From the NCBI GenBank assembly GCA_947646735.1, contig CANTFK010000129.1, forward strand, positions 248,001 to 312,000: 64,000 nucleotides of DNA, read 5' to 3'. Shown here one piece after another: positions 6,711 through 57,233 of the stretch; position 1 is the first letter of the stretch; every line of letters starts with the position of its first letter. The notes beneath the pieces were generated by a model, which worked only from the letters and a program-made list of their open reading frames with translations, was not told the DNA's origin and searched no databases. A program made the position numbers and the translations under genes. The stretch comes from Peronospora farinosa (lineage: Eukaryota; Oomycota; Peronosporomycetes; Peronosporales; Peronosporaceae).

Positions 6711-6979
6711 CTCTAAACAGTTTATACCTCTCGCAACGAATGGCGAGATGGTTGTCGTTCTTCGCGGAGTAAAACTTCTCCGTAGAGTATTACTGAGACG
6801 TTTTAACGTCTCTGCCAATGTGCTCCCACGTCGGTCCAAATTCAAGCCGACTATGCAGTCCGACAGTGAAATAAATACCACCATGTCGCTACGCTAAGTA
6901 TGCTGTTATAATGTCGTCGAGTTTATTTGACGAATTAGAATGGCTTGTGCACAAGATAAGGAACTTGTACGCCTGATAA

Positions 6980-7295
6980 TGTAATGGGGCAACCTATTAC
7001 ATAAGTAGTTATAGAAATAATACTTAATTACATAAGTAGGCATAGGGCAGTATCCGATTAGCGGATACTGCACGTCATTTTATTATTGGTTTATTATTGG
7101 GGTGCCAGACCCAATGATTAGCCAACAATAAACTGACTTCCATATTGAGTGGTTCCCATGGCTAGGGAACATATTCGCACTTACTGTAAATTAAAACTAA
7201 AAAAAATAAAACAGAGTTATATTTACGAGTTAATTAAGAGCGCTTCCTCAACGCCCTTTTAGTGTAAGACGGTAACGGGTCCTTAGTATGTTACA
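6980..7295 (+). repeat. 5' LTR of gypsy element 1
   Basis: 316 bp, TGTAATGG...TATGTTACA. It begins with TGTAATGGGGCAACC followed by TATTACATAAGTAG, and lacks the hairpin found at the start of the 3' LTR. Diagnostic 5'-type bases are AATGATT near 7130, CCCTTTTAG near 7257, and GGTAACGGGTCCTTAGTATG near the end. The same states are found in the 5' LTR of element 2. Confidence 0.92.
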
Positions 7296-7297
7296 CC

Positions 7298-7316
7298 TGG
7301 TAGCACTTCGTAGTCC
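7298..7316 (+). promoter_or_regulatory. Candidate primer binding site of element 1
   Basis: TGGTAGCACTTCGTAGTCC begins two bases after the LTR end, the usual place for the tRNA primer site, and begins TGG as expected for pairing with a CCA tail. The matching tRNA was not identified. The same sequence lies at the equivalent place in element 2. Confidence 0.55.
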
Positions 7317-7321
7317 TTCCA

Positions 7322-8341
7322 ATGACCAGATCCGAGATGAACATGGGCGAGTCTTCGGTGGCTCCAGCGGTCTCGCTGGAGCATTCTAATTTTTCACATC
7401 TCACCTCAGTGGAGTGGCAGGCACTACATCGCCTCGCGGCGGTATCTGGTGAAACTATTGTGACGTCACTGCTGAGCACAGCGACGCCCGATGATCAACG
7501 CGCCGCCATCCATTTTATGGTGCGCGAGCTCCCCGAAGCGAATCGGCGAGTATTGACTCCCTCGCGCACTTCGCACCATGACGCTATCAAAATGGAGACG
7601 TCAACGTACTCCGGTGATGGTCCGGATCGTCTCCCCCTTACTCGCTGGTCTCGAGAGGTGGATATTGCAATCGCGTCAAGATTGATTGACGCTCCAACGG
7701 CCAAGGTCAATTTCCTGCTGTCTAGGTTTGTTGGCAAAACCAAGGAATGGGCTCTTGGAAAGCTCGTCGTAGATGAGTCGGCGTTCCCCACGCTGGACGA
7801 TATCCAGCGTGACTTACGACTGGATTTCGAGCCTCCTCAAGATGAATCTCGCTGCGTGCCGATTTCTTCTCACTCCGACAGGGCAAGCTGTCGATGCGTG
7901 ACTACGTGTAGAAGAAACGTCATCTTGCTTCGTGCATTACCACGCAGCCGATCGACATGGCTTCACAAGTCCATGTCTTTATTTTTGGTATGCAGGAGGG
8001 CATGACGCGTTACTGCCTCACTCGTGCTGAACCAAAGTCCCTTGAGGAGGCATTTGCCCGCGCGCTTCGTGAGGGTTACACTCTCGCGTCGTCGTACCTG
8101 CACGCAGCGTCACCAACATCCCCGGAGATCTGGCCCAGAACCAATGGAACTTGACCTCTTGCGGCAAATCATCCGGCCGCGACATGCGCAATCCTAACAC
8201 GATGAAGTGTTTTCGCTGTGGTAAGACAGGCCATCATGCGGCTGTATGTCGAGCACCTGCGCCGGTGACTATGAACATAGCTGTCTCACGAGGAGACGCT
8301 ATGTCGTCGGTGGTCCCGCCAAAAAATGAGCGGTTCCAGTA
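7322..8341 (+). pseudogene. Gag region of element 1, frame-broken
   Basis: Starts with ATG at 7322 and reads 227 codons as a retrotransposon capsid-like protein; the middle contains [19 protein letters not shown], a typical gypsy gag block. The frame then breaks near 7900. The continuation is in another frame at 7957-8154 (the block [20 protein letters not shown]). A CCHC zinc knuckle CFRCGKTGHHAAVC follows at about 8207-8250. The three pieces are collinear with an ordinary gag, so this is a broken gene, not separate genes. Confidence 0.85.
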
Positions 8342-8386
8342 GGCGCGAGGCGCCCTACTGGCAGAAATGGAGCTCCGAGTATTCAG

Positions 8387-8830
8387 GTGGCAGATTGGGC
8401 TCTTAGCCCCAAAGTGATCCATAATCACTTCAATGCCATTACCATGCGCGATGATTCGAGACAAATTATTATCAGTCTCATCGTTGCTGGAGTGAGCGAC
8501 CATTCCGAGCGTTGTTGGATTATGCCTTATAACAACTTCTTTCGTGCATCCTGTTTGCCCCTTCTCCCGTCGAATGTCACGGTTCGAGAATGTCCAGGTG
8601 ACATCGTTGTCAAACTTCCCGATGGACAACCAAAACGTGTCCCGCGTAAAACAGTGGTTTTACCGCACACTTTCGACGGTTTCCAGAGCAACGACGAATT
8701 TTTGGTGTACGAGATGAATTATGCATTTGATTGAATACTTGGGATACCGTGGCTGTCACGGTATCAGCCGAAGATAGATTGGCTATCTCGGTCCGTCAAA
8801 CGACGAAGCGAATATGATGTCAGTGAAGTT
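8387..8830 (+). pseudogene. Protease region of element 1, active site disrupted
   Basis: Collinear with the retropepsin domain of gypsy elements: the downstream half (FDGFQSNDEFLVYEMNYAFD, then ILGIPWLSRY-like sequence in the next frame) is well preserved. At about 8508-8535, where the D-[ST]-G-A active-site loop should be, the Leu-Leu-Asp run is followed by a stop and a frame change, and the GA is absent. The lesion is identical in element 2. Inactive as it stands. Confidence 0.7.
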
Positions 8831-8839
8831 TTCACTCAA

Positions 8840-9478
8840 TTGTTGGTCGCGTCATCCGATCGACCCCACGTCAGGGTCGTGAACGAGCTCGCCACGACTA
8901 GTAGTCAACACAGAGATATCGATGGCCCTCTGTGCGCAGTATGTTCCTTTACACTGATGAAGCCACAGATCGAAGAGGTCAAACAGCGATTCCCTCATAC
9001 ACAGACATCGGACGAGCAGAGGATCCCGGTTAATATCGAGGCGGTCGAGCAGGGGCTCCCGCAAACAAGTGAAGCGGTCGAAGACGAGCTCCCGCTTTTG
9101 ATTGACGAGAATGGGCGGACTATGGATCCGCATGAAACCGACGTGGTGGAGACTGACCTTCCACGTCTAGACGGGAATACATCATCCTCCTGTGATAGCG
9201 ACGTGCCAGTCTCGAGCAGTGGATCGAGACGCAAAAGAAACTGCAAGAAAGAAGCACGCCGATCACCGAGACGACGACATTCACGACAAAAAGCTGATGC
9301 AGATGATTTCGTAGTGACGGAATCCGTATGCGCGCTTGAATATGTGGAGGGATCCCCACATCGTGGCCGCTACATTGAGGTAACTAGCCCACCGTGCACT
9401 GCTGCAGATATCACATCTCTGCCAGACCTTGCATGGAAAGACTTCCTTCATGACCTCAAGGCCGGCGACATCGAGTAA
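8840..9478 (+). pseudogene. Linker region of element 1 pol
   Basis: A 212-codon open frame between protease and reverse transcriptase. It is hydrophilic and repetitive (EEVKQRFPHTQT, EAVEQGLPQTSEAVE and similar), with a basic SGSRRKRNCKKEARRSPRR stretch and the C-terminal LPDLAWKDFLHDLKAGDIE. It has no domain I recognise and occurs identically in element 2. Such spacers are common in oomycete gypsy polyproteins. Confidence 0.6.
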
Positions 9479-9599
9479 GTGTGCATAGTTTCAGCCACCG
9501 AAGCAGCCAGCGAAGAAGTTCTGGAGGATCGCCCAAACAGCGCCGAGCCTAAATCAGCGCGCAAAGAACGCTTTGTGGCATAGTTTTGGGATGCTCTTC

Positions 9600-10323
9600 T
9601 TGCTTAGGGTAACTCTGTCTATGATATCGCCCGTGAGTACGCCGATATTTTTCCGGAAAAAGTTCCAGCTGAGCTTCCGGCGGATCGTGGTGTGCGGCAC
9701 GAGATCTATCTCGTGCCAGGATCGAAATACTGCGTGACACAGCAGTGGTCGTTACCGCGTGATCAAGCCATCGCTATTGATGAATTTTTCGAGGGTCGCT
9801 GTAAGGCTGGCCATGTCCGCGAGAGTATCTCGCCCCATTCGAGCCTAACTTTCTGTATGAAGAAAGCCACCGGCGGTTGGCGCATTGTGCACGCTTTTAA
9901 CAAGCTGAATGACGCCACGATCTTTGCTCAAACGCCTACCCTCGAAAAGACATGGTATTAAATACCTTGTCCGGGATCGAGATCTACAGCGCCATAGATC
10001 TGGCAGACGGTTTCTATCAGATTCTCATGAGGGACAGCGACATTCCGTTCACTGCGGCCAGCACCCCAAGCGGGATGCTTTGGGAGTGGTTAGTCATGCC
10101 ACAAGGTCTTAAGAATGCTCCAGCTAAGGTCAATCGGATGGTGACACAAGTACTTCGCCCACTTCGCGACTTTGCACCGAGCTACTTTGACGATATTTTT
10201 GTTCACAGCTGCACTGAGCTTTTGCTCAGCGCTACGGAGGTACACCTTCGATACTTGAAGCAGGTGTTTCAAGTTATGCGCGAGAATAAATTGTATGCGA
10301 ATTTGAAGAAATGTGTCTTCTGA
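9600..10323 (+). pseudogene. Reverse transcriptase region of element 1
   Basis: RT fingers and palm in two frames. 9692-9961 carries WSLPRDQAIAIDEFFEG and FCMKKATGGWRIVHAFNKLN. 9952-10323 carries YSAIDLADGFYQILM, MPQGLKNAPAKVNR and the catalytic YFDDIFVHS (YxDD box) near 10182. The two frames meet at a shift near 9950; the first runs into a stop (TAA at 9959-9961). A further stop follows at 10323. The catalytic Asp residues are still encoded. Confidence 0.9.
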
Positions 10324-10499
10324 GCTCCCGAGATTCCAGTACTCGGTTGCTACGTCAGCAAAGAAGGTGTCCGCGCTGATCCTGAGAAGATCTCATCGAT
10401 CTGTTCCTGGAAAACGCCCAGGAACCAAACTGAATTACGTCATTTTCGGTCTGGCGAATTACTTGCATAAGTATACTAAGAATTTTCTAGCCATTATCG

Positions 10500-11010
10500 A
10501 CTTTGCTCAAGAAAGACGCAGTATGGTTATGGACGGCAGAACATCAATCTGCCTTCGACTCCGTAAAGAAGAGCTTGTCTGAGGCACCGGTGCTGATGCT
10601 ACCTGATGACTCTAAGCCATTCCACGTCGTATGCGACGCGAGCAATTTCGCTATAGGATGTGCTCTCATGCAACTTGATGACGAGGGCCGGGAGTGAGTT
10701 TTCAGTCACGACAAATGAAACCTGACGAGAAAAATTATCCGGTACACGATAAGGAACTTTTGTCTATACGTTACGCGCTAATCAAGTTCAAAGTATATTT
10801 GCTCGGCGAAAAGATGTTTTCTCTATCTACATAAATCACGCATCATTGCGTACCGCCGTCAAGAGTCCTCACTTGTCCCAGCGCATGGCACGGTGGTTGT
10901 CATTTTTCGCCGAGTATAAATTTTTGGTGCATTACAAGCCTGGCAAGAATAACATTCTCGCTGACGCGCTTTCTCGTCGTCCGGATTACGATCCTCGACG
11001 CGACATTGGT
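10500..11010 (+). pseudogene. RNase H region of element 1
   Basis: 10503-10697 reads VWLWTAEHQSAFDSVKKSL and FHVVCDASNFAIGCALMQ, the tether and first RNase H strand with the catalytic Asp. After a stop and frame change, the KELLSIRYALIKFK block and HYKPGKNNILADALSRRP (10846-11031) complete the domain. This is the normal gypsy order. Confidence 0.88.
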
Positions 11011-12045
11011 CACAAACGAGAATGTTGGTGACGACGAAGATCTCTTTGCGTGTTGTATTGAGATGGGGCTCAATGCGATGATTTCGACCCCCGTGCTTTT
11101 GATCCGAACTCAGATCGCTGAATCATATGCGAATGATTCCTTCTATGCAGGAATCATCAATTATCTCAGGGACCCGAGCAAAAAATTACTCGCGAAGTTG
11201 ACGAAACCAACACGCGACAACATCAAGATTTACGCGCTTGACGGTCCGTTGCTGACGTACACGATGGACGTCTTTGACTCCCCGCGTGTCGTCATCCCTG
11301 CTGATGACGACCTTCGAGCCCGATTGGTTCATGAATTTCACGACAGCCCAGCTGGCGGACACCTGGGTCGTGAAAAGACGTTTGCGGCTATTTCTCGCGT
11401 ATTTTTCTGGCCGCGAATGTTTATAAGTACATCCAGAAATGGGTGCGCTCCTGTGAAACCTGTCAGCGTGTGAAGCCCACCCCATCTTCACAAGCCCCAT
11501 TGCGTCCGCTTCCGATTTCTACGGAAGCCTGGCGCTTGGTCAGTATGGATTTTATCTTTAGCCTTCCACCGGATGAACAGAAACGCACGGGCGTATTGGT
11601 TCTAGTGGATCGATTTAGCAAAATGGTGCATTTTGCTCCGGTCTTCGCCAACATTACGGCGGAGACGACAGCGAAGATCTTCATTGATCTTATCTTTAGG
11701 CATCAAGGCTTGCCAGAATCTATTGTTTCGGACCGTGACCCGCGTTTCACTTCGACTTTTTGGGCCGAATTATTCCAACTATTAGGCACGCGGGTGATTA
11801 TGTCTACGGCGGCCCATCCAGAGACGGATGGGCAAACGGAGCGTGTGAACAGAGTGCTCGAAGATGTCTTGGGCAGTTATGCAACATCGTTCTCGTCATG
11901 GAGTTCGTTTCTTCCACTTGCAGAGTTAGCTTTCTACAATGGGTTCCATGCGTCAACCGGGTTGACGTCCTTTTCGTTAACAACGCGAGGCATCCTCGTG
12001 TTCCGGCGCTACTTGCTCTCTCAGCTTCGGAGCATCCATTCTTAA
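11006..12045 (+). pseudogene. Integrase of element 1, frameshifted
   Basis: HHCC zinc-binding region (FHDSPAGGHLGREKTF, then CETCQRVK) and DDE core: Asp in VSMDF, Asp in VSDRDPRFTSTFW, Glu in HPETDGQTERVNR. Relative to element 2 there are two extra bases near 11420 (AATGTTTATAAG versus AATGTATAAG), which split the ORF into 11006-11473 and 11443-12045. The equivalent element 2 frame is continuous through this region, so the shift here is specific to this copy. Confidence 0.9.
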
Positions 12046-12168
12046 AGCTTGGTGGGGGAGTATCTACTGATTACATTGCACCAGAACTAATGAGGATGAT
12101 TAATATGAGAATAAGGTTGCTGCCTATGCACCTAATACTGGTAATTTTGTGGCCAACGGCATGACGAG

Positions 12169-12560
12169 ATGCTTTCCATCGCGTCTCCCGTTCCTAATTT
12201 TGCCCCAAAAGAGAATACGTCGCCTGTAAGTTCGGCTGCAGTAACCGAATTTCTGCTATTACGACAAGGAATCACGCGTTTTGTGCGTGATGCATTACAA
12301 GAGGCAGTCGATAAGCAAAAGGAGAATGCAGACAGAAGAGGTCGAAAGAATATCTTGTTATTTCGAGAAGGTGACAGAGTATTGTTATCAACAAGTGGAT
12401 TACCGAACACCTCAGTGACGAATTTGGGCGCTAATAAGTTAGCGCCAAGATATATTGGCCCATTTCGGGTTGTTAAAGTGCATGGTGACGCTTACACGCT
12501 ATATACCTAAATCTATGCGTTTGCACCCGACGTTCTATGTCGGGCGCCTCAAAGCCTACC
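12169..12560 (+). pseudogene. Integrase C-terminal region of element 1
   Basis: The frame at 12169-12510 contains RDALQEAVDKQKENADRRG, then FREGDRVLLST and LAPRYIGPFRVVKVHGDAY, the GPF/Y-type module after the gypsy integrase core. The next frame gives MRLHPTFYVGRLKAYLP. Positions and motifs match other gypsy elements. Confidence 0.85.
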
Positions 12561-12984
12561 TACCGGTGGATCTCCCATCGAATATTTCCCGCTCTTCTGT
12601 GCCGGTACAAAAACTACATCCCTTCACGACAACGCTGACGACGACTGGGACCAAGTCCTGCCCGAATGCGTGTAGACTCGATCTGCTGGGATCCTCCGAA
12701 CGCAGTCGTCCCAAGTTGGCGCATGCGCTCAACCAGTACCAGCTGCTCACGTCGAGTCCGCTCAGCAGCCTCAGTCGCAGCATCCGCACGATCTTGAGCT
12801 CTCTCATCCATCTCGCGAGCATCAAGTAGGGTATTTTTCGATTCCTCTGCTTCAGCGCGAAGTAGGCGCAGCTCATCATTCGACTATACAGGCTCCCGAT
12901 TGCGAGAATCGGCGCTCATCGCCAGAGGTCTTCCGTCGTGATGCTCCTCCTCCCTTAGTTGATGCATCGGGTGCGCGACGTTGG

Positions 12985-13374
12985 ATGGTTGACCGTAATG
13001 TCGTTCACGAGGATCACAAGCCCCAGGCGCCGAGTAATAACTCGGCGCCCATGAAGAAGCATGTCGAGAAACATTACAGGGTTCGCTGGTTGGGATATTC
13101 CCCGGCGGACGATACATGGGAGCCATCGAGTACGCTGTCCCAAGATGTCCCGGACGTGGTCGAGGACTGTGAGCTCCGTAGAAAGACGGTGATCGCGATC
13201 AACGCTGCCGGTTCCATCCCCGATCCTGCGATCCGTAATGCTCGCGAGCAACGAAAATATGACAACCTCCTGAGCGACTCCGAGACCGAGACCTATTACG
13301 AGGCTCGGGAGCATACGGATGATACGGTTGACGACCACGTTTACGTGAACGCCCTCGTGATCGTAAGGGCGTGA
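12985..13374 (+). pseudogene. Chromodomain of element 1
   Basis: Contains HYRVRWLGYSPADDTWEPSS, the chromodomain core with the W-x4-D/S-x-TWEP signature, preceded by a KKHVEKH segment. In chromoviruses this C-terminal domain of integrase directs insertion to heterochromatin. The open frame is 129 codons and is preserved in element 2. The remaining element to about 13990 has no recognised domain. Confidence 0.85.
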
Positions 13375-13996
13375 TCTCACTCGTCGTAGATCGAACAATT
13401 GGAACTTTGAAAGGCTTCTCTTATAACGGGCAATCCATTGACGATATGCCCCACGTACACACCAAGTCGTCCCATTCCTGCCGGACCGGGCGAGATCTCC
13501 TCGTGTTGCACGTTGGACATCCCTCACGATCGTGGACGTAACAAAGATGATACTCGTCACAAGTCATGCGACAGATGCGTCGGCGCAGTTCGCCAATAGC
13601 GTGCCTATCACGCGTTCCCTCGCGACCATCTAACCAGGACGTGAAAGACTTTCCGTCACGTCGACTCACGTTCCAGCGTCTGATGAAGGCACACCAAGAT
13701 CTCTAAGACGGATCATCGGTATACGCGTTGTTCGTCGCTTTGCCTCTCACTGTACGGTATCGCATGAAGAGGTCCTTCATGACCTCCAGTGGCTCGGGTT
13801 CGACAGCACCTTCAAGACCATACAAGCGCCACGGCTTCAAGTCCCTATCCATGACCTGCGGCACCTATTCTATTCGAATCGTCTCTTGGTGTCCCCAGTT
13901 CTAATTGTCAGAGATATCGTTTCGTGGACGTCCAAAGTCTATGCTGCTCAGTTATGTGCTTACGTTGAGGTAAGCGCATCTTAACGAGGGGGGTGA

Positions 13997-14322
13997 TGCA
14001 ATGGGGCAACCTATGTAATAGGTTGCCCCATTGCAGTTATAGAAATAATACTTAATTACATAAGTAGGCATAGGGCAGTATCCGATTAGCGGATACTGCA
14101 CGTCATTTTATTATTGGTTTATTATTGGGGTGCCAGACCCAATAATTAGCCAACAATAAACTGACTTCCACATTGAGTGGTTCCCATGGCTAGGGAACAT
14201 ATTCGCACTTACTGTAAATTAAAAATAAAAAAAATAAAACAGAGTTATATTTACGAGTTAATTAAGGGCGCTTCCTCAACGCCCTTTAGTGTAAGACGGT
14301 AACAAGTCCTTAGCCTGTTACA
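13997..14322 (+). repeat. 3' LTR of gypsy element 1, with hairpin start
   Basis: 326 bp, TGCAATGG...CCTGTTACA. It starts with an 18-bp perfect inverted repeat (13997-14014 and 14018-14035, arm TGCAATGGGGCAACCTAT, loop GTA) that the 5' LTR lacks. Other 3'-type bases are AATAATT, CCCTTTAG and GGTAACAAGTCCTTAGCCTG. The preceding GAGGGGGG is the polypurine tract. Confidence 0.92.
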
Positions 14323-14589
14323 GATGGAGTACATTAAGGACCCATTTAAAAAAATCTAAAAGCGCTTTCCTGCCTTGTATCGATCTTTAACAGATCGATA
14401 CACCCAGCGGACCGGCTTGCTGTATTGCCCATCCGTCAACGTCGAAATGTCTCGTGTCGTCGTACCTCCTTAACACGATCCCAGGTTACGGGTATTGTTG
14501 AATGTCACGATGTACCATTGAGTGGGCATCGCGGCCGTGAAAAGACTAATGTCACGGTCAGTTGCGATTTTTTACTTGCCACGCCAATA

Positions 14590-14790
14590 TAAGTATGTGT
14601 GTAAGAAAGTTCGTGCTTGGGAGGTGTGTCAATGTGGTGGAGTGGAATTCGCAAAATTTCTGATGCGATTTCGACTCTTCTCTGGCGCCCGAACATTCGA
14701 TCAACAAAGGGGGTACCCCAATTCCGTGTGTAAAGCCTTCCTCACCTTGTGTACCCGTCAATTGGGCGGGTTGCTCTCTTCTCGGTGGAC
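14590..14790 (-). repeat. Dispersed repeat R, copy 2
   Basis: On the minus strand this reads AACCCGCCCAATTGACGGG, then TACACAAGGTGAGGAAGG, then the TCGAATGTTCGGG and CACCACATTGACAC phrases. All are collinear with the copies at 6.5 kb and 26.8 kb. Orientation is opposite to those two. Confidence 0.65.
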
Positions 14791-16009
14791 TTGAGTCGAT
14801 GTTGAACTTGATTGTGTTAGGGATAGGTGGGGGCGATCGAGTGGAATTCCTCGCACGATCGCAGTTGTTCTTTGGCTTACTCGATTTGAGTCGTCTGGTC
14901 TCCCTTCAGATCGCCTTGTCCAATTGTTTGATGCTTAATCCACTTGCCTTCTGCCCACTTGAGCCGTCTCGCGATCTTGTATCTGGACTTCATAGTCCTC
15001 TGCGTCCAATCGCATCTTGGGGGTGTCTTGAGAGTCCTTGACGCACCTGGCCAAACGTACACTTGCGGGGGGGGGGGGGTGAGCTTCTCAAGACGTTGGG
15101 TCCAACCCGGAGAAGAAGCTGGCATGTGTTCCTTTTGAAGTAAATTTAACGCTCTCTAATGTTAACCAATCAAATACCAAAACCTACGATTCTGCCTATC
15201 TGTAGTCCAGGATCTATTGCCACGTATCACCCTTTCGGGAAAATTAGGTTTGTTATGTGGTTCACTACAATGTTACTGCGGTCTAAATCGCTGCCTCGAT
15301 CGGATCTAGTACTGATTTAAGTATTAAAATCGCAGTACTAATTGGTAGTATCGTATCACGATCCGCCGGATCATGGCTCGGCGCTGTCATCTTCCCAGTT
15401 CACCGGATCAGGTAAAATGGTCCATCTACATGATATTTCATGTCCACATCAGTCCAGTCTTCCAGAGTGATGTAGTATACACCAGAATGTGATCCAAATA
15501 CTTGAACATACTAATTCTCCATCTTAGCGATCGCATTCACGAGTATCGACATTCGTAAAATACTGGGATCGCAGTTGCGTAGTTCTAGGCCGTAGTTGAT
15601 CCAACATAGAACTGCGAGCACCATCATTCGCTGTTGTACATTCCATTTGTAACGTCTCAAGAACTTCTTCTGCTGGATCGCGATTCATCCATTCTACCCA
15701 TTTCGGATTTAATCAAAAATTCGCGATCTCACGTTGCAAATTCATTCTTTCTCTTCGCCACATTAACTAATGAAACCTATTTCTCCTCTATGTGCACCGT
15801 TTCGCCTCTGCCTCTTTCAGCAGAGAATTTTGAGTCCGTATTAATGGACTTCATCTCTGAAAAAATCCAAAGACCCGCAAATATAATGTTTGCTTGTGTT
15901 TGTATACAGTTTTAGCAAGATGGTTAATCTTGGTGCTGTACCTCAATAGATCACAGCAGAAGGCTGGGCTCGAGTGTTCGTCAGTATAATTTTTCATGAT
16001 TGCTCGGCT

Positions 16010-16790
16010 TACCCCGTATACTCGTGTTCGATAGGGACCCTCGGTTCACGGCAGAGTTTTGGTAATCTTCGTTTCTTCAACTTGGAACACGGCTAACAAT
16101 GTATACTTTCGACCATCCGGACACCAATGGTCAGACAGTATTCGCCAACCGCGTCCTCCAAGAAATATTTTAAGGAAACGTCTACTCGTAAACGAGTTGT
16201 AGAGAGCTCTTGCCGATTGTCAAGGTTGCCATTTATGTGGCACCACCTTAGCTTAAAGTGACTGTAACTCAAGGGGGAGGAGACCGCTCGAGCGAGAACC
16301 AATTTGGCTCTTGCTTAAAACGCGTCGACGTAATTACCGACGCCAAGATAATCGAAGCTACCATTTATTAATCTGAAAGAAAGAAGTAGGAAGAGAGATA
16401 ATGCACTTACTGATGAAGATGCTGAAGACATCACTATCTCCATAATGCTTTTGCTGATTTTTTCAATGGAATCTCTGCAGTGCTATCACAATGCACTGCA
16501 TCCAAAAGCAATGAGTAAGCATAGGATTTACTGCTGACTCGACAAACATTTATTAATAGTGATTTAACTTTACTGTTTACTGTAATTCTACCTAAACGTG
16601 CTGTGACTAGCGTGGACGGCAATAAATTGTTGCACAATTACATCGGCCCATTCCGTGTACTGCGCCACATAGACAACGCACACACTATTGAGCTGCCACG
16701 TAAATGCGTACGCATCCTACGTTTTACGTGAGACGTCTTCGTTCGCACATTCACTACGCGACTTCTTCGAGCGGCAAAGATAGCTTTCAC
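16010..16790 (+). pseudogene. Decayed gypsy integrase fragment
   Basis: About 16025-16065 reads as RDPRFTAEFW-like integrase core, 16100-16170 as the HPDTNGQT(V)FANRVLQE segment, and 16630-16780 as NYIGPFRVLRHIDNAHTIEL followed by RTHPTFYVRRLRSHI, the post-integrase module. Stops and shifts throughout. A diverged relative of elements 1 and 2 on the plus strand. Confidence 0.75.
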
Positions 16791-17499
16791 GCTCATGAAT
16801 ATTCATGCAAATTAGCAGTTTCTTCACGCATCTCAGAGAAGATGCGAGCCCACCACCAGGTCCCATCAAGGAGAAAAGCTTCCTTGTGTCAACGTATTCG
16901 TACACGCATGAAACGAGTCTTCTTAAGCGAGTCATGGCGAACCAGCCTCCCTCGTCAATTAATGCAACTTGTAGCGTGCACCAACTGGATTTCGCTTTTT
17001 CAACCTGCTATGGTCTACAACAAGTCTGTTGAGCCAGGCTTCGCATTTAACGCAAACAGGCTGTGAATAAACGCGTACCAGGCCTGCAATAGTGCGTTAT
17101 TTTTACTTTTGTGGCTCGCTCTGTACCATCGATGTTTAGAAATCTGTTAATTGAAGAACTCATGCTCAGTATGATACATACTCGCATTGGCGTTAAGGCC
17201 ATGGAATTTTCTGATGATATAAATACCTTTTATATGTCTCTCGCGTGTCAATTTATACCGGCAATCTAGTAGATGATGTAGCAGCATCCACGGCCTAAGT
17301 TCAAGAGAGCTGCGTAGGGAACCGCGGTGTCTTTTCTCCTGCGTGTTGTCAATAAAATTTTCGACATCACGTTCATCGTGTCCAAGTGTGACTCACTCGG
17401 CTCGGTGGCGGGCCGTGTGATACAATGAAAGACCCAGTATCTCGCGGTGTATTTGCTCATTATATTCGGGCGAACTCGGGAACGTAGTATGCGCTTATG

Positions 17500-17850
17500 A
17501 GTTGGATGACACATTCGACTTGTCAGAGCATCGGACCTCCAACTCTGGGGTAAATTTTGACGTAACATACTACTCAATGCATGCGAATAAGGATACGCCT
17601 GAACCACGAAACGATCGACAATCTGTCATCGTGCACCCATTGCATCGACCAAGGGAAGAGGAGTATCGCGGCGAAAAGTGGATTGGTGATTCACATAATT
17701 GCGCGCCTCGTTCGCCAGCCGACGAGTTGTGGTTCTTTCGCGTTAAGTTGACGAGACGAAGAACAGAATTGCTCAATGCCTATGGAGTGGCCGAGAACGC
17801 TCGGCGATCACGCGGCTGGTTTGATGGAGGCTGTTGAAAAGACCAAAGGT
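17500..17850 (-). pseudogene. Decayed gypsy 3' fragment, minus strand
   Basis: The plus-strand phrase GTGCACCCATTGCATCGACC and the following AAGGGAAGAGGAGTATCGCG match element 2 at about 19415-19455 with substitutions, and 17715-17765 resembles 19505-19550. It is therefore a diverged relative in the same orientation as element 2, from the region between the integrase tail and the chromodomain. Confidence 0.55.
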
Positions 17851-18062
17851 GAACAAAAAAGGGTTGATTAAGCGCCTTCCGCAACTTTAGACTACTGCAT
17901 TTCAAGGGCACCAGCACAACGAATGTGCACGCGCTCGAAAAGGACTTGGTCCAGTAGTCTGTCAATGTCTTTACTTAGGGGTACCCGATAACAATTCGTC
18001 TCAAAGTAGTGGAAAGATATTCTAAAAGTCCGCCGAATGGAAAAGTTAACACACTCAACGTA

Positions 18063-18386
18063 TGTAACAGGCTAAGGACTTGTTACCGTCTCACACTAAA
18101 GGGCGTTGAGGAAGCGCTCTTAATTAACTCGTAAATATAACTCTGTTTTATTTTTTTGTTTTAATTTACAGTAAGTGCGAATATGTTCCCTAGCCATGGG
18201 AACCACTCAATATGGAAGTCAGTTTATTGTTGGCTAATTATTGGGTCTGGCACCCCAATAATAAACCAATAATAAAATGACGTGCAGTATCCGCTAATCG
18301 GATACTGCCCTATGCCTACTTATGTAATTAAGTATTATTTCTATAACTGCAATGGGGCAACCTATTACATAGGTTGCCCCATTGCA
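18063..18386 (-). repeat. 3' LTR of gypsy element 2, with hairpin start
   Basis: Read on the minus strand it starts TGCAATGGGGCAACCTAT, loop GTA, then the perfect complement (18348-18386 on the plus strand), and ends CCTGTTACA. It has the same 3'-type states as the 3' LTR of element 1: hairpin, AATAATT, CCCTTTAG, AACAAGTCC, AGCCTG. Confidence 0.92.
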
Positions 18387-19011
18387 TCACCCCCCCCCTC
18401 GTTAAGATGCGCTTACCTCAACGTAAGCACATAACTGAGCAGCATAGACTTTGGACGTCCACGAAACGATATCTCTGACAATTAGAACTGGGGACACCAA
18501 GAGACGATTCGAATAGAATAGGTGCCGCAGGTCATGGATAGGGACTTGAAGCCGTGGCGCTTGTATGGTCTTGAAGGTGCTGTCGAACCCGAGCCACTGG
18601 AGGTCATGAAGGACCTCTTCATTCGATACCGTACAGTGAGAGGCAAAGCGACGAACAACGCGTATACCGATGATCCGTCTTAGAGATCTTGGTGTGCCTT
18701 CATCAGACGCTGGAACGTGAGTCGACGTGACGGAAAGTCTTTCACGTCCTGGTTAGATGGTCGCGAGGGAACGCGTGATAGGCACGCTATTGGCGAACTG
18801 CGCCGACGCATCTGTCGCATGACTTGTGACGAGTATCATCTTTGTTACGTCCACGATCGTGAGGGATGTCCAACGTGCAACACGAGAAGATCTCGCCCGG
18901 TCCGGCAGGAATGGGACGACTTGGTGTGTACGTGGGGCATATCGTCAATGGATTGCCCGTTATAAGAGAAGCCTTTCAAAGTTCCAATTGTTCGATCTAC
19001 GACGAGTGAGA

Positions 19012-19401
19012 TCACGCCCTTACGATCACGAGGGCGTTCACGTAAACGTGGTCGTCAACCGTATCATCCGTATGCTCCCGAGCCTCGTAATAGGTCTCGG
19101 TCTCGGAGTCGCTCAGGAGGTTGTCATATTTTCGTTGCTCGCGAGCATTACGGATCGCAGGATCGGGGATGGAACCGGCAGCGTTGATCGCGATCACCGT
19201 CTTTCTACGGAGCTCACAGTCCTCGACCACGTCCGGGACATCTTGGGACAGCGTACTCGATGGCTCCCATGTATCGTCCGCCGGGGAATATCCCAACCAG
19301 CGAACCCTGTAATGTTTCTCGACATGCTTCTTCATGGGCGCCGAGTTATTACTCGGCGCCTGGGGCTTGTGATCCTCGTGATCGACATTACGGTCAACCA
19401 T
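19012..19401 (-). pseudogene. Chromodomain of element 2
   Basis: 129-codon frame with HYRVRWLGYSPADDTWEPSS, as in element 1. The only change seen is near the start (NVVHED in element 1, NVDHED here). Confidence 0.85.
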
Positions 19402-19875
19402 CCAACGTCGCGCACCCGATGCATCAACTAAGGGAGGAGGAGCATCACGACGGAAGACCTCTGGCGATGAGCGCCGATTCTCGCAATCGGGCGCCTGTAT
19501 AGTCGAATGATGAGCTGCGCCTACTTCGCGCTGAAGCAGAGGAATCGAAAAATACCCTACTTGATGCTCGCGAGATGGATGAGAGAGCTCAAGATCGTGC
19601 GGATGCTGCGACTGAGGCTGCTGAGCGGACTCGACGTGAGCAGCTGGTACTGGTTGAGCGCATGCGCCAACTTGGGACGACTGCGTTCGGAGGATCCCAG
19701 CAGATCGAGTCTACACGCATTCGGGCAGGACTTGGTCCCAGTCGTCGTCAGCGTTGTCGTGAAGGGATGTTGTTTTTGTACCGGCACAGAAGAGCGGGAA
19801 ATATTCGATGGGAGATCCACCGGTAGGTAGGCTTTGAGGCGCCCGACATAGAACGTCGGGTGCAAACGCATAGAT

Positions 19876-20217
19876 TTAGGTATATAGCGTGTAAGCGTCA
19901 CCATGCACCTTAACAACCCGAAATGGGCCAATATATCTTGGCGCTAACTTATTAGCGCCCAAATTCGTCACTGAGGTGTTCGGTAATCCACTTGTTGATA
20001 ACAATACTCTGTCACCTTCTCGAAATAACAAGATATTCTTTCGACCTCTTCTGTCTGCATTCTCCTTTTGCTTATCGACTGCCTCTTGTAATGCATCACG
20101 CACAAAACGCGTGATTCCTTGTCGTAATAGCAGAAATTCGGTTACTGCAGCCGAACTTACAGGCGACGTATTCTCTTTTGGGGCAAAATTAGGAACGGGA
20201 GACGCGATGGAAAGCAT
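19876..20217 (-). pseudogene. Integrase C-terminal region of element 2
   Basis: Same protein as element 1 at this place (FREGDRVLLST, LAPRYIGPFRVVKVHGDAY). The following frame (19557-19931) again holds MRLHPTFYVGRLKAYLP. Confidence 0.85.
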
Positions 20218-20340
20218 CTCGTCATGCCGTTGGCCACAAAATTACCAGTATTAGGTGCATAGGCAGCAACCTTATTCTCATATTAATCATCCTCATTAGT
20301 TCTGGCGCAATGTAATCAGTAGATACTCCCCCACCAAGCT

Positions 20341-21321
20341 TTAAGAATGGATGCTCCGAAGCTGAGAGAGCAAGTAGCGCCGGAACACGAGGATGCCTCG
20401 CGTTGTTAACGAAAAGGACGTCAACCCGGTTGACGCATGGAACCCATTGTAGAAAGCTAACTCTGCAAGTGGAAGAAACGAACTCCATGACAAAAACGAT
20501 GTTGCATAACTGCGCAAGACATCTTCGAGCACTCTGTTCACACGCTCCGTTTGCCCATCCGTCTCTGGATGGGCCGCCGTAGACATAATCACCCGCGTGC
20601 CTAATAGTTGGAATAATTCGGCCCAAAAAGTCGAAGTGAAACGCGGGTCACGGTCCGAAACAATAGATTCTGGCAAGCCTTGATGCCTAAAGATAAGATC
20701 AATGAAGATCTTCGCTGTCGTCTCCGCCGTAATGTTGGCGAAGACCGGAGCAAAATGCACCATTTTGCTAAATCGATCCACTAGAACCAATACGCCCGTG
20801 CGTTTCTGTTCATCCGGTGGAAGGCTAAAGATAAAATCCATACTGACCAAGCGCCAGGCTTCCGTAGAAATCGGAAGCGGACGCAATGGGGCTTGTGAAG
20901 ATGGGGTGGGCTTCACACGCTGACAGGTTTCACAGGAGCGCACCCATTTCTGGATGTACTTATACATTCGCGGCCAGAAAAATACGCGAGAAATAGCCGC
21001 AAACGTCTTTTCACGACCCAGGTGTCCGCCAGCTGGGCTGTCGTGAAATTCATGAACCAATCGGGCTCGAAGGTCGTCATCAGCAGGGATGACGACACGC
21101 GGGGAGTCAAAGACGTCCATCGTGTACGTCAGCAACGGACCGTCAAGCGCGTAAATCTTGATGTTGTCGCGTGTTGGTTTCGTCAACTTCGCGAGTAATT
21201 TTTTGCTCGGGTCCCTGAGATAATTGATGATTCCTGCATAGAAGGAATCATTCGCATATGATTCAGCGATCTGAGTTCGGATCAAAAGCACGGGGGTCGA
21301 AATCATCGCATTGAGCCCCAT
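20341..21321 (-). pseudogene. Integrase of element 2, continuous frame
   Basis: A 326-codon frame joins the HHCC zinc region (VHEFHDSPAGGHLGREKTF ... CETCQRVK) to the DDE core (VSMDF, SDRDPRF, PETDGQTERVNR). This is the longest intact integrase piece in the window; in element 1 the same region is split by two extra bases. It is still separated from RNase H upstream and from the C-terminal module downstream by stops, so it is not a complete polyprotein. Confidence 0.9.
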
Positions 21322-21499
21322 CTCAATACAACACGCAAAGAGATCTTCGTCGTCACCAACATTCTCCGTGGACCAATGTCGCGTCGAGGATCGTAATCCG
21401 GACGACGAGAAAGCGCGTCAGCGAGAATGTTATTCTTGCCAGGCTTGTAATGCACCAAAAATTTATACTCGGCGAAAAATGACAACCACCGTGCCATGC

Positions 21500-22830
21500 G
21501 CTGGGACAAGTGAGGACTCTTGACGGCGGTACGCAATGATGCGTGATTTATGTAGATAGAGAAAACATCTTTTCGCCGAGCAAATATACTTTGAACTTGA
21601 TTAGCGCGTAACGTATAGACAAAAGTTCCTTATCGTGTACCGGATAATTTTTCTCGTCAGGTTTCATTTGTCGTGATTGAAAACTCACTCCCGGCCCTCG
21701 TCATCAAGTTGCATGAGAGCACATCCTATAGCGAAATTGCTCGCGTCGCATACGACGTGGAATGGCTTAGAGTCATCAGGTAGCATCAGCACCGGTGCCT
21801 CAGACAAGCTCTTCTTTACGGAGTCGAAGGCAGATTGATGTTCTGCCGTCCATAACCATACTGCGTCTTTCTTGAGCAAAGTCGATAATGGCTAGAAAAT
21901 TCTTAGTATACTTATGCAAGTAATTCGCCAGACCGAAAATGACGTAATTCAGTTTGGTTCCTGGGCGTTTTCCAGGAACAGATCGATGAGATCTTCTCAG
22001 GATCAGCGCGGACACCTTCTTTGCTGACGTAGCAACCGAGTACTGGAATCTCGGGAGCTCAGAAGACACATTTCTTCAAATTCGCATACAATTTATTCTC
22101 GCGCATAACTTGAAACACCTGCTTCAAGTATCGAAGGTGTACCTCCGTAGCGCTGAGCAAAAGCTCAGTGCAGCTGTGAACAAAAATATCGTCAAAGTAG
22201 CTCGGTGCAAAGTCGCGAAGTGGGCGAAGTACTTGTGTCACCATCCGATTGACCTTAGCTGGAGCATTCTTAAGACCTTGTGGCATGACTAACCACTCCC
22301 AAAGCATCCCGCTTGGGGTGCTGGCCGCAGTGAACGGAATGTCGCTGTCCCTCATGAGAATCTGATAGAAACCGTCTGCCAGATCTATGGCGCTGTAGAT
22401 CTCGATCCCGGACAAGGTATTTAATACCATGTCTTTTCGAGGGTAGGCGTTTGAGCAAAGATCGTGGCGTCATTCAGCTTGTTAAAAGCGTGCACAATGC
22501 GCCAACCGCCGGTGGCTTTCTTCATACAGAAAGTTAGGCTCGAATGGGGCGAGATACTCTCGCGGACATGGCCAGCCTTACAGCGACCCTCGAAAAATTC
22601 ATCAATAGCGATGGCTTGATCACGCGGTAACGACCACTGCTGTGTCACGCAGTATTTCGATCCTGGCACGAGATAGATCTCGTGCCGCACACCACGATCC
22701 GCCGGAAGCTCAGCTGGAACTTTTCCCGGAAAAATATCGGCGTACTCACGGGCGATATCATAGACAGAGTTACCCTAAGCAAGAAGAGCATCCCAAAACT
22801 ATGCCACAAAGCGTTCTTTGCGCGCTGATT
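21500..22830 (-). pseudogene. Reverse transcriptase and RNase H of element 2
   Basis: 22421-22690 carries WSLPRDQAIAIDEFFEG and the WRIVHAFNKLN block. 22059-22430 carries YSAIDLADGFYQILM and YFDDIFVHS. 21685-21879 carries RNase H FHVVCDASNFAIGCALMQ, and 21303-21536 the KPGKNNILADALSRRP end. The frame changes and stops are at the same places as in element 1. Confidence 0.88.
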
Positions 22831-22903
22831 TAGGCTCGGCGCTGTTTGGGCGATCCTCCAGAACTTCTTCGCTGGCTGCTTCGGTGGCTGAAACTATGCA
22901 CAC

Positions 22904-23542
22904 TTACTCGATGTCGCCGGCCTTGAGGTCATGAAGGAAGTCTTTCCATGCAAGGTCTGGCAGAGATGTGATATCTGCAGCAGTGCACGGTGGGCTAGTT
23001 ACCTCAATGTAGCGGCCACGATGTGGGGATCCCTCCACATATTCAAGCGCGCATACGGATTCCGTCACTACGAAATCATCTGCATCAGCTTTTTGTCGTG
23101 AATGTCGTCGTCTCGGTGATCGGCGTGCTTCTTTCTTGCAGTTTCTTTTGCGTCTCGATCCACTGCTCGAGACTGGCACGTCGCTATCACAGGAGGATGA
23201 TGTATTCCCGTCTAGACGTGGAAGGTCAGTCTCCACCACGTCGGTTTCATGCGGATCCATAGTCCGCCCATTCTCGTCAATCAAAAGCGGGAGCTCGTCT
23301 TCGACCGCTTCACTTGTTTGCGGGAGCCCCTGCTCGACCGCCTCGATATTAACCGGGATCCTCTGCTCGTCCGATGTCTGTGTATGAGGGAACCGCTGTT
23401 TGACCTCTTCGATCTGTGGCTTCATCAGTGTAAAGGAACATACTGCGCACAGAGGGCCATCGATATCTCTGTGTTGACTACTAGTCGTGGCGAGCTCGTT
23501 CACGACCCTGACGTGGGGTCGATCGGATGACGCGACCAACAA
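22904..23542 (-). pseudogene. Linker region of element 2 pol
   Basis: The same 212-codon hydrophilic frame as in element 1 (starts MLVASSDRPHVRVVNEL, ends LHDLKAGDIE). No recognised domain. Confidence 0.6.
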
Positions 23543-23647
23543 TTGAGTGAAAACTTCACTGACATCATATTCGCTTCGTCGTTTGACGGACCGAGATAGC
23601 CAATCTATCTTCGGCTGATACCGTGACAGCCACGGTATCCCAAGTAT

Positions 23648-24100
23648 TCAATCAAATGCATAATTCATCTCGTACACCAAAAATTCGTCGTTGCTCTGGA
23701 AACCGTCGAAAGTGTGCGGTAAAACCACTGTTTTACGCGGGACACGTTTTGGTTGTCCATCGGGAAGTTTGACAACGATGTCACCTGGACATTCTCGAAC
23801 CGTGACATTCGACGGGAGAAGGGGCAAACAGGATGCACGAAAGAAGTTGTTATAAGGCATAATCCAACAACGCTCGGAATGGTCGCTCACTCCAGCAACG
23901 ATGAGACTGATAATAATTTGTCTCGAATCATCGCGCATGGTAATGGCATTGAAGTGATTATGGATCACTTTGGGGCTAAGAGCCCAATCTGCCACCTGAA
24001 TACTCGGAGCTCCATTTCTGCCAGTAGGGCGCCTCGCGCCTACTGGAACCGCTCATTTTTTGGCGGGACCACCGACGACATAGCGTCTCCTCGTGAGACA
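23648..24100 (-). pseudogene. Protease region of element 2, active site disrupted
   Basis: Equivalent to 8387-8830 of element 1, with the same loss of the active-site loop (plus-strand TTGTTATAAGGCATAATCC at about 23847-23865). The downstream FDGFQSNDEFLVYEMNYAFD block is intact. Confidence 0.7.
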
Positions 24101-25059
24101 GCTATGTTCATAGTCACCGGCGCAGGTGCTCGACAGACAGCCGCATGATGGCCTGTCTTACCACAGCGAAAACACTTCATCGTGTTAGGATTGCGCATGT
24201 CGCGGCCGGATGATTTGCCGCAAGAGGTCAAGTTCCATTGGTTCTGGGCCAGATCTCCGGGGATGTTGGTGACGCTGCGTGCAGGTACGACGACGCGAGA
24301 GTGTAACCCTCACGAAGCGCGCGGGCAAATGCCTCCTCAAGGGACTTTGGTTCAGCACGAGTGAGGCAGTAACGCGTCATGCCCTCCTGCATACCAAAAA
24401 TAAAGACATGGACTTGTGAAGCCATGTCGATCGGCTGCGTGGTAATGCACGAAGCAAGATGACGTTTCTTCTACACGTAGTCACGCATCGACAGCTTGCC
24501 CTGTCGGAGTGAGAAGAAATCGGCACGCAGCGAGATTCATCTTGAGGAGGCTCGAAATCCAGTCGTAAGTCACGCTGGATATCGTCCAGCGTGGGGAACG
24601 CCGACTCATCTACGACGAGCTTTCCAAGAGCCCATTCCTTGGTTTTGCCAACAAACCTAGACAGCAGGAAATTGACCTTGGCCGTTGGAGCGTCAATCAA
24701 TCTTGACGCGATTGCAATATCCACCTCGCGAAACCAGCGAGTAAGGGGGAGACGATCCGGACCATCACCGGAGTACGTTGACGTCTCCATTTTGATAGCG
24801 TCATGGTGCGAAGTGCGCGAGGGAGTCAATACTCGCCGATTCGCTTCGGGGAGCTCGCGCACCATAAAATGGATGGCGGCCGTTGATCATCGGGCGTCGC
24901 TGTGCTCAGCAGTGACGTCACAATAGTTTCACCAGACACCGCCGCGAGGCGATGTAGTGCCTGCCACTCCACTGAGGTGAGATGTGAAAAATTAGAATGC
25001 TCCAGCGAGACCGCTGGAGCCACCGAAGACTCGCCCATGTTCATCTCGGATCTGGTCAT
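24040..25059 (-). pseudogene. Gag region of element 2, frame-broken
   Basis: Starts at the ATG at 25059. Relative to element 1 one base is missing near 24860-24865 (CAACGGCCGCC against CAACGCGCCGCC), so the first frame ends early at 24826 and the capsid part continues in 24377-24865. The zinc knuckle CFRCGKTGHHAAVC lies in the 24040-24231 frame. Otherwise as element 1. Confidence 0.85.
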
Positions 25060-25085
25060 TGGAAGGACTACGAAGTGCTACCAGG

Positions 25086-25401
25086 TGTAACATACTAAGG
25101 ACCCGTTACCGTCTTACACTAAAAGGGCGTTGAGGAAGCGCTCTTAATTAACTCGTAAATATAACTCTGTTTTATTTTTTTTAGTTTTAATTCGCAGTAA
25201 GTGCGAATATGTTCCCTAGCCATGGGAACCACTCAATATGGAAGTCAGTTTATTGTTGGCTAATCATTGGGTCTGGCACCCCAATAATAAACCAATAATA
25301 AAATGACGTGCAGTATCCGCTAATCGGACACTGCCCTATGCCTACTTATGTAATTAAGTATTATTTCTATAACTACTTATGTAATAGGTTGCTCCATTAC
25401 A
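25086..25401 (-). repeat. 5' LTR of gypsy element 2
   Basis: 316 bp, minus-strand TGTAATGG...TATGTTACA. It has the same 5'-type states as the 5' LTR of element 1 (no hairpin, AATGATT, CCCTTTTAG, AACGGGTCC, AGTATG). One extra change is GCTCC for GCCCC near 25391. Confidence 0.92.
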
Positions 25402-56296: not shown

Positions 56297-57233
56297 TGTC
56301 GACTGGAAAAGGCTTTCGCTGGCTCAGATCGCTTGATTGGCCTAGCGAATGCGAGGTTCAATATCTCCCTGCTAACGTACTTCCGAGCTGTGCGGGGGGG
56401 GGGGGGGTCCTTCGAAATCAACTTCTTTCGTTGTGGAACGACACTAAACGTGCGGCTGCTGTATGATTGTAAGAAAAAGTGAGAAAGCGAACACCTGTAG
56501 GTCCGATTCCAAATCACTTCTCTGTCTCTTTGAATACGAGTTCACAATCGCTCGGTGGATTTTTTGTCGCTGCAAGAGCCTTCTTCTTGTAGGATACGGT
56601 AGTGAGCTCTATATCATGTATATCACTGTCTTCAAACCGCTTCAGGAGACGATCAGAAATTGCTACACCTGAATATAAGACGCCTTGTCTTGCTGTCTTT
56701 ATCTGATGGTGCGTCACGTATCGACCTTACGCATGTTCCCCTACATTGCCATCATTACCCACAAGAATAAACCGTTACCGTGAAATGGCGCTAACTAGTA
56801 ACCCATTCCAGCTCCAATAAAAGGTTTTACGATGACACATGACACACGTTTCGTGGGTCTACACTTTTGACAACACGCCAAGGGAAATCGTGTCGATGGT
56901 GCATTGAGCGCATTTTATACAGTACGCAAGCGCTTTGATCAAGACTGAACAAGCTATAGATAGCGGAGATGACGTTGCAATCGCGTCGCAATGTTACGGA
57001 CGAATAGCGCCTATAATGATCGTCTAATGTTTGATACGATCTGGTCACATTACAGAGCACTGCTCCTTGTCTCCAACGCCACCGACTACACCAAAAGATG
57101 AACGACAATCAGATCAAAAGCGCACAAATCGCACTAACATAGCACACATTGGACGTACATGGCATACCCGGGCCCTGTAGAGCAGCATACAAAACCAACG
57201 TCAGACTTGAACCCAATTATAAGTGTAATGTGC
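56297..57233. other. Intergenic, contains promoter of copy A
   Basis: 56297-56500 is homologous to the region upstream of copy B (63000-63171), but here contains a 14-G run (56394-56407). No gene recognised further on. Confidence 0.5.

What the first reader, a model, noticed from the sequence alone, without database searches (positions are those of the whole stretch)
6980..25401. Two inverted gypsy copies share the same 5'-versus-3' LTR differences
In both elements the 5' LTR has no hairpin and reads AATGATT, CCCTTTTAG, AACGGGTCC and AGTATG, while the 3' LTR has the hairpin and reads AATAATT, CCCTTTAG, AACAAGTCC and AGCCTG. LTRs differ more within an element than between equivalent LTRs of the two elements. 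Reverse transcription normally makes both LTRs of a new copy from one template, so two independent transpositions should not preserve this pattern. Ectopic gene conversion across the whole 7.3 kb, DNA-level duplication, or an assembly artefact fits better. Flanking DNA is not shared, so conversion of one insertion by the other is my preferred reading.
Basis: partly seen in the sequence, partly recalled or inferred. Interest (0 to 1): 0.75.

Follow-up and report, generated by a model that had tools for sequence, protein, structure and literature searches.

The report
Neighbouring inverted retrotransposons copying each other
Two broken retrotransposons lying in opposite orientation a few kilobases apart carry the same private scars in matching ends, which normal retrotransposition cannot do; the best reading is that neighbouring inverted copies in this genome overwrite each other by gene conversion, a known process seen here on an unusually complete scale.

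Summary
The copies are 6980-14322 (+) and 25401-18063 (-). They are 99.5% identical, and the homology stops exactly at the LTR ends. The four LTRs group 5' with 5' and 3' with 3'. The shared marks, including a 39-nt hairpin, are essentially absent from 38 LTRs of 19 other copies. Both bodies are broken alike, and the next best of 40 scored copies is 93% identical. Two separate retrotranspositions cannot explain this; DNA-level exchange is needed.

Related patterns occur at four other inverted pairs under 4 kb apart: shared 5'-versus-3' marks (C48; weakly C195), intact separate target duplications with near-identical bodies (C195), exchanged target duplications, the mark of crossover inversion (C48, C57), a shared 3'-LTR deletion (C229). 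A pair 26 kb apart lacks them (C178). Of 297 unlinked pairs, 289 share no such site.

Best reading: ectopic gene conversion between neighbouring inverted insertions, probably repeated, since LTRs differ about four times more than interiors. For the window pair, one-step duplication or an assembly error is not excluded: its target duplications match only 3/5 and 4/5. A known kind of process, unusually complete here.

The parts
6980..14322 (+). Copy W1: full-length, degenerate Ty3/gypsy (chromodomain) element
   Evidence: 99.5% identical to W2 end to end; RVT_1, Integrase_H2C2, rve and Chromo fragments
18063..25401 (-). Copy W2: the inverted partner of W1
   Evidence: of the coding-strand frames of 90 aa or more (14 in W1, 13 in W2), 12 share their last 40 residues, i.e. 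end at the same stop
6980..7295 (+). W1 5' LTR (no hairpin)
   Evidence: TGTAAT..TTACA, followed by the family's 5' junction CCTGGTAGCACTTCG
13997..14322 (+). W1 3' LTR (with hairpin)
25086..25401 (-). W2 5' LTR (no hairpin)
18063..18386 (-). W2 3' LTR (with hairpin)
13997..14035 (+). Hairpin in W1 3' LTR: 18-nt arms, GTA loop; reverse-complement copy of the LTR start replacing TACATAAGTA
   Evidence: sequence; in the assembly the 26-nt core matches only the two window sites (each on both strands, being a palindrome) plus one 3-mismatch place, C237, that I read as an ordinary LTR start on the other strand
18348..18386 (-). Identical hairpin in W2 3' LTR
14323..18062 (.). 3.74-kb spacer between the two 3' LTRs; no second full copy found, part of it belongs to an older repeat family
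   Evidence: (40 of 887 candidates scored): only itself at full length; mostly about 1.1 kb of it matches other places, at 69-88%
6975..6979 (+). W1 5' flank GATAA, against GATGG at 14323-14327 (3 of 5 match)
25402..25406 (-). W2 5' flank TACTT, against TACGT at 18062-18058 (4 of 5 match)

Best explanation
W1 and W2 began as two old insertions of one Ty3/gypsy chromodomain family, 3.7 kb apart and in opposite orientation (inferred). One had aged long enough for its two LTRs to gain different mutations, including a template-switch hairpin in the 3' LTR (shown: private, polarised changes; the template switch is my reading of the sequence). Homologous repair using the inverted neighbour as template then overwrote the other copy from LTR to LTR, carrying the 5'-specific and 3'-specific marks with it (inferred). 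Conversion probably recurred, because the interior is less diverged than the LTRs (shown: about 20/6,690 against 8/640 substitutions). The same kind of exchange acts on other inverted neighbours in this genome, sometimes with crossover, which flips the spacer and swaps target-site duplications (footprints at C48 and C57).
For: LTR pairing: 10 sites (6 runs; 4 sites from the hairpin rewrite) for 5'-5'/3'-3', 0 for each alternative. The changes are private to W and polarised against 38 LTRs. The hairpin is at the two window sites only (see parts for one 3-mismatch match). The pair is an isolated lineage: interior 100% (rounded) to each other, next best 93% of the 40 scored copies. 12 frame stops are shared. 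Homology ends exactly at LTR ends and flanks differ, unlike the C225 palindrome, where flank is shared at 432/432 bases. Replicates: C48 has 6 private 5'-versus-3' sites, identical 5' LTRs and crossed TSD GTACT; C195 has intact own TSDs AGTTG and GTGCC, a 99.3% interior and outer-edge family alleles in one LTR; C57 has crossed TSD GTCAA, and the two LTRs beside it have no substitution, one 1-base indel; C229's 3' LTRs share a private 1-base deletion. C178, inverted but about 26 kb apart, shows the ordinary pattern: 6 sites group by element, 0 for 5'-versus-3', both TSDs perfect. Unlinked pairs: 289 of 297 share no 5'-versus-3' site, maximum 2. LTR against interior divergence: Fisher p=0.002. 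W own-TSD matches total 7/10, crossed matches 1/5 and 1/5; two random flank pairs reach a total of 7 with p=0.0065.
Against: W's TSDs are imperfect, whereas 13 of 19 control elements have perfect 5-bp TSDs at the exact boundary. Three TSD mismatches in ten is more than the roughly 3% LTR divergence predicts, so by my estimate the TSDs are close to neutral between old TSDs and no TSDs. No stretch of W1 or W2 looks like leftover sequence of a different acceptor: of 18 interior differences with outgroup data only 12477 (8 to 3) and 11894 (9 to 1) show both states in the family. The marks private to W reach to 45 nt from the outer 5' end and 17 nt from the outer 3' end, very complete next to published LTR conversion tracts. 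The replicates are not uniform. C48's 3' LTRs do not form a clade in the body tree (only its 5' LTRs do, 99), and at column 92 three of its LTRs share a private C that C48+ 3' lacks. C195's 5'-versus-3' signal is one substitution (1 of 44 others has it) and one indel (7 of 44), and C195-'s 5' LTR is by substitutions nearer to C57+ (3) than to C195+ (4). C229's LTRs are equally close by substitutions. In the 2.5-kb interior piece only W, C195 and C229 are mutual best; C57- is closer to C29- and C48+ to C57-. No direct-orientation control was usable.
Confidence: 0.7

Rival explanations
1. One-step DNA-level duplication: an aged element was copied as a unit into a nearby site in inverted orientation, for example by repair that filled a solo LTR or by integration of an extrachromosomal DNA copy.
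For: Only two members of the lineage among the scored copies, adjacent; no leftover acceptor tract in the interior; W TSDs imperfect.
Against: A one-step copy predicts equal divergence along the element, but LTRs differ about four times more than the interior. Exact LTR-to-LTR ends are not expected of segmental duplication; C225 shows what that looks like, with flank included. A young integrase insertion should have a perfect TSD. C195 shows a related, weaker pattern between two insertions with intact separate TSDs. Conversion of a solo LTR into a full element would fit both readings.
Confidence: 0.16
2. Assembly artefact: the assembler placed one element's consensus at two sites.
For: High identity, inverted and close; the assembly contains at least one exact palindromic stretch (C225), which may itself be an artefact. 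Reads were not available.
Against: 33 spread differences between the copies, most of them a departure of one copy from the family state where this could be polarised. Same-type exchange at other pairs, with crossed target duplications that an assembler would not be expected to invent.
Confidence: 0.09
3. Two sister retrotranspositions from one parent element or one particle, landing close together.
For: All five close inverted pairs compared are sister in the interior tree (support 73 to 100), and so is C178 about 26 kb apart.
Against: Reverse transcription makes both LTRs of a new copy from one template (established retroviral scheme), yet W and C48 share 10 and 6 5'-versus-3' sites, and W's two interiors are about 0.3% apart while its own LTRs are about 3-5% apart.
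Confidence: 0.03

Closest known systems
Non-allelic (ectopic) gene conversion among LTRs, e.g. human LTR elements (PMC4921805; passages read) and plant LTR retrotransposons (PMC7251063; passages read)
   Same: Homology-directed copying between different insertions; the human paper states, citing others, that frequency falls with distance in cis.
   Different: Reported tracts are short: maximum tract 14-450 bp in the human LTR study, mostly 100-1,000 bp in the plant study. Here the exchanged unit is 7.3 kb from LTR to LTR, and it concerns inverted neighbours.
crapaud LTR retrotransposon of Podospora (PMC10787394; passages read)
   Same: 7 of 150 full copies have disparate 5' and 3' ends, attributed to gene conversion or ectopic recombination.
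   Different: There the mixed ends mark single copies; here a mixed pair of ends is shared by two neighbouring copies.
Ty-mediated non-allelic recombination in yeast (PMC2996329; passages read)
   Same: Gene conversion and other recombination between dispersed Ty copies; the paper has a section on intrachromosomal position bias of donors.
   Different: Induced breaks in the laboratory; here an evolutionary footprint.
Arm-to-arm conversion in palindromes, e.g. willow sex chromosome (PMC7023750; search listing with the start of its abstract only)
   Same: Inverted arms kept alike by gene conversion.
   Different: Those are palindromic repeats on a sex chromosome; here each arm is a single retrotransposon between unrelated flanks.
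LTR phylogeny of human proviruses as a record of ectopic recombination (Hughes and Coffin; recalled, nothing seen)
   Same: Uses LTR pairing to detect post-integration exchange (recalled).
   Different: Not checked here.

Membership tests
Ty3/gypsy, chromodomain (chromovirus) LTR retrotransposon | RT, then integrase (H2C2 and rve), then chromodomain, in Ty3/gypsy order | tested here: met
   RVT_1 in 9913-10320, Integrase_H2C2 and rve in 10835-12042, Chromo in 12676-13371
Ty3/gypsy, chromodomain (chromovirus) LTR retrotransposon | LTRs bounded TG..CA and a 5-bp target-site duplication | tested here: met
   Family: 13 of 19 control elements perfect at 5 bp; W itself only 3/5 and 4/5
Products of ectopic gene conversion | Sequence shared between non-allelic copies but not with flanks, discordant with insertion history | tested here: met
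Products of ectopic gene conversion | Both copies are independent insertions with their own target-site duplications | tested here: inconclusive
   W: 3/5 and 4/5. C195: both perfect
Products of ectopic gene conversion | Tract boundaries with leftover acceptor sequence | tested here: inconclusive
   W: none clear. C195- 5' LTR: family alleles at columns 10, 12 and 24 of its outer edge
Inversion by crossover between inverted repeats | Target-site duplications exchanged between the two copies | tested here: not met
   For W: crossed matches 1/5 and 1/5. Met at C48 (GTACT 5/5, the other end 3/5) and in part at C57 (GTCAA 5/5, the other end unavailable)
Segmental inverted duplication | Flanking DNA duplicated together with the element | tested here: not met
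   Homology stops at the LTR ends

The most novel reading that the evidence does not exclude
Closely spaced inverted retrotransposon pairs in this genome behave as self-homogenising palindromes: arms within a few kilobases are repeatedly rewritten over their full 7 kb, ends included, and recombine to flip the spacer, while pairs tens of kilobases apart do not. LTR-based ages of such copies are then meaningless, and inverted pairs form a distinct, concertedly evolving class of insertions.
Probability: 0.38. Interest if true: 0.58.

Novelty: new member of a known kind. Interest (0 to 1): 0.42.

Why it matters
LTR divergence is the standard clock for retrotransposon age and assumes the two LTRs of a copy evolve independently of other copies. 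Here that fails: the two elements look recently made by interior comparison, yet each has LTRs several per cent apart. The private 5' and 3' marks and the target-site duplications form a simple test, usable on any assembly, that separates retrotransposition, conversion and crossover. It would allow the distance and orientation dependence of natural ectopic recombination to be measured genome-wide.

Tried and rejected
Tried and weak or empty: (1) Own versus crossed target duplications for W: own fit better (3/5 and 4/5 against 1/5 and 1/5) but neither is perfect. (2) Leftover acceptor tracts in the W interior: none clear (its outgroup numbers count fetched loci, some of them the same place fetched twice). 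(3) Direct-orientation controls (C11 trio, C13a/b, C29a/b, C5x with C5p): nearly all belong to another subfamily (LTR about 71-78% to the query; C29a 86-91%), their LTR ends were cut wrongly by my script, C13b's 5' LTR was not found, and C11a and C11b share 5' flank (tandem duplication) and one 5'-versus-3' site, so they say nothing either way. (4) Further inverted neighbours: C6 (4440-/7361+ and 346 kb/350 kb) pair different or distant LTRs (66% and 75%); the C40 and C18 probes are not two comparable elements, and the C222 probe gave no LTR match. (5) C229- and C57- have no 5' LTR at the predicted place, so these pairs lack the four-LTR test. (6) C178: interiors are sister (support 100) but 109 differences apart over 2,059 columns, with LTRs grouping by element. 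(7) C13+ and C13- (about 43 kb apart, inverted): C13- matches in fragments; its best match among the compared pieces is C13+ at 96.9% over 508 bases; not used. (8) A paralogous empty site was not searched for, since the spacer side of both insertions showed no second copy near the junctions.

Dropped rows: C57x, a false pair of mine, was left out. Pairs were taken from truncated hit lists (40 scored copies or about 100 listed places out of hundreds), not from an exhaustive census; 'unlinked' pairs include a few far apart on one contig.
Full report
Observation. The window holds two copies of one LTR retrotransposon, W1 at 6980-14322 (+) and W2 at 25401-18063 (-), 99.5% identical over 7,346 aligned columns, with no alignment beyond the LTR ends. 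They differ by 28 substitutions and 5 indels. Fragments match RVT_1, Integrase_H2C2, rve and Chromo in Ty3/gypsy order. Both copies are degenerate; of the coding-strand frames of 90 aa or more (14 in W1, 13 in W2), 12 end at the same stop in both. The window lies in an unnamed 46.85-Mb genome of 274 contigs.

The four LTRs. Against 38 LTRs of 19 other elements the changes can be polarised. Both 3' LTRs carry T2C, the hairpin, a T deletion at column 303 and GG to AA at 323-324. Both 5' LTRs carry A150G and CC to TA at 333-334. None of these derived states occurs in the 38 others, except that the hairpin's rewriting also changes column 25, where 1 of 38 has the derived letter. The hairpin has 18-nt arms and a GTA loop; it is a reverse-complement copy of the LTR start replacing ten bases, as a template switch would make (reading of the sequence). 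A search of the assembly with its 26-nt core at up to 3 mismatches finds the two window sites, each on both strands, and one 3-mismatch place on C237 that I read as an ordinary LTR start on the other strand, against 422 matches to the ordinary LTR start. The tree without the hairpin end joins the two 3' LTRs (96) and the two 5' LTRs (71) inside a W clade (100).

Isolation of the pair. In the interior stretch 9000-11000 the two copies match each other at 100% (rounded; two substitutions), and the next best of 40 scored copies (of 1,106 candidates) reaches 93%. Over window 10000-12500 W1 and W2 are 99.5% identical, and 91-93% to 13 other pieces. The lineage therefore has two known members, 3.7 kb apart. 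No second full copy of the spacer was found.

Why not retrotransposition. In the established scheme both LTRs of a new copy are made from one template, so a difference between the LTRs of the parent is lost. Here the differences are shared LTR by LTR, so the sharing must have happened at DNA level. The copies also share frame-breaking damage.

Replicates in the same genome. Five inverted pairs closer than 4 kb with comparable elements were compared (W, C48, C195, C229, C57), plus C178 about 26 kb apart. In a tree of 17 interior pieces over 2,059 columns all six pairs are sisters (support W 100, C195 100, C229 100, C178 100, C48 99, C57 73); by simple identity only W, C195 and C229 are mutual best. 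C48, head to head, spacer 1.56 kb: six private sites separate the two 5' LTRs (identical) from the two 3' LTRs, four derived in the 5' and two in the 3'; one target duplication is crossed between the copies (GTACT 5/5) and the other end matches 3/5, the mark of inversion by crossover plus conversion. Its 3' LTRs do not form a clade in the body tree, and column 92 conflicts. C195, head to head, spacer 1.69 kb: both copies have their own perfect target duplications, AGTTG and GTGCC, so they are two insertions, yet the interiors are 99.3% identical, the LTR tree joins 5' with 5' (97) and 3' with 3' (73), and the outer edge of one 5' LTR keeps alleles common elsewhere in the family; the 5'-versus-3' signal is only one substitution and one indel, the indel also seen in 7 of 44 other LTRs. 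C57, tail to tail: target duplication GTCAA is crossed, and the two LTRs beside it have no substitution and one 1-base indel. C229: the 3' LTRs share a private one-base deletion absent from the one available 5' LTR, though by substitutions all three LTRs are equally close. C178: the ordinary pattern, 6 sites by element, none 5'-versus-3', both target duplications perfect. Among 297 unlinked element pairs, 289 share no 5'-versus-3' site, 7 share one and 1 shares two; W shares ten (six runs), C48 six and C195 one.

Mechanism. The best reading is gene conversion between inverted neighbours, with one copy repaired from the other. Shown: DNA-level sharing at W and C48, and crossover footprints at C48 and C57. 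Supported: exchange between separately inserted copies at C195, if its two shared LTR differences are accepted. Inferred: that W1 and W2 were both prior insertions. The W target duplications match 3/5 and 4/5; two random flank pairs reach a total of 7 with probability 0.0065, but at an LTR divergence of about 3% three mismatches in ten are also unlikely, so this evidence is weak. The LTRs of the two copies differ at 8/640 positions and the interiors at about 20/6,690 (Fisher p=0.002), which a single event does not predict and recurrent conversion weaker near the ends does. The CG/TA exception (columns 224-225) fits a short LTR-to-LTR conversion, bounded by columns 150 and 303, and is hard to explain by reversion.

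Against. No interior stretch looks like leftover acceptor. Of 18 interior differences with outgroup data, W1 departs from the family majority at 10, W2 at 6, both at 2. Marks private to W reach to 45 nt from the outer 5' end and 17 nt from the outer 3' end, very complete for conversion. Duplication onto a solo LTR would look nearly the same. No usable direct-orientation pairs were found as a control. Reads were not available.

Literature. Conversion between LTRs is established: maximum tracts 14-450 bp in human LTRs, with frequency said to fall with distance in cis (PMC4921805, passages); mostly 100-1,000 bp in plants (PMC7251063, passages); 7 of 150 full crapaud copies have disparate ends (PMC10787394, passages); Ty recombination in yeast (PMC2996329, passages). 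In the listings I saw no title or abstract start about full-length homogenisation of neighbouring inverted LTR retrotransposons; that is not proof of absence.

Verdict. Real, well explained by a known process, unusually complete, and with related footprints at other close inverted pairs in the same genome.

Noticed in passing
G000:C225:206240-206680 and 216010-216450 (L110, L111): Two 5' LTRs with identical flanks in inverted orientation about 10 kb apart (432/432 bases): a palindrome that includes flank, either a true inverted duplication or an assembly fold-back.
   Followed up: partly
G000:C222:140510-141776: Four exact LTR-start matches in the same orientation at 414-base spacing: a tandem array of LTR-containing units.
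   Followed up: no
G000:C11:256570-284450 (L117-L122): Three direct copies of another subfamily at roughly 10-kb spacing; two share the same 5' flank, so part is a tandem segmental duplication.
   Followed up: no
window 55468-56356 and 63112-64000: Inverted 889-bp repeat at 97.9% identity overlapping a PAP2-like reading frame; the second copy runs to the window edge.
   Followed up: no
window about 9000-9070 and related copies: Many other family members match a unit of about 65 nt here two to four times in tandem; no such tandem array was found in W1 at 8500-9600.
   Followed up: partly
window 25909-26157: A 77% match to the element's pol region (11783-12028) just outside W2's 5' end: probably an older element fragment.
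   Followed up: no
G000:C29:298396-306126 (L043, L044): A copy with nearly identical LTRs (3/318 plus one gap) but no target-site duplication (0/5), sharing two 5'-versus-3' sites with C35: a candidate recombinant between distant copies.
   Followed up: no
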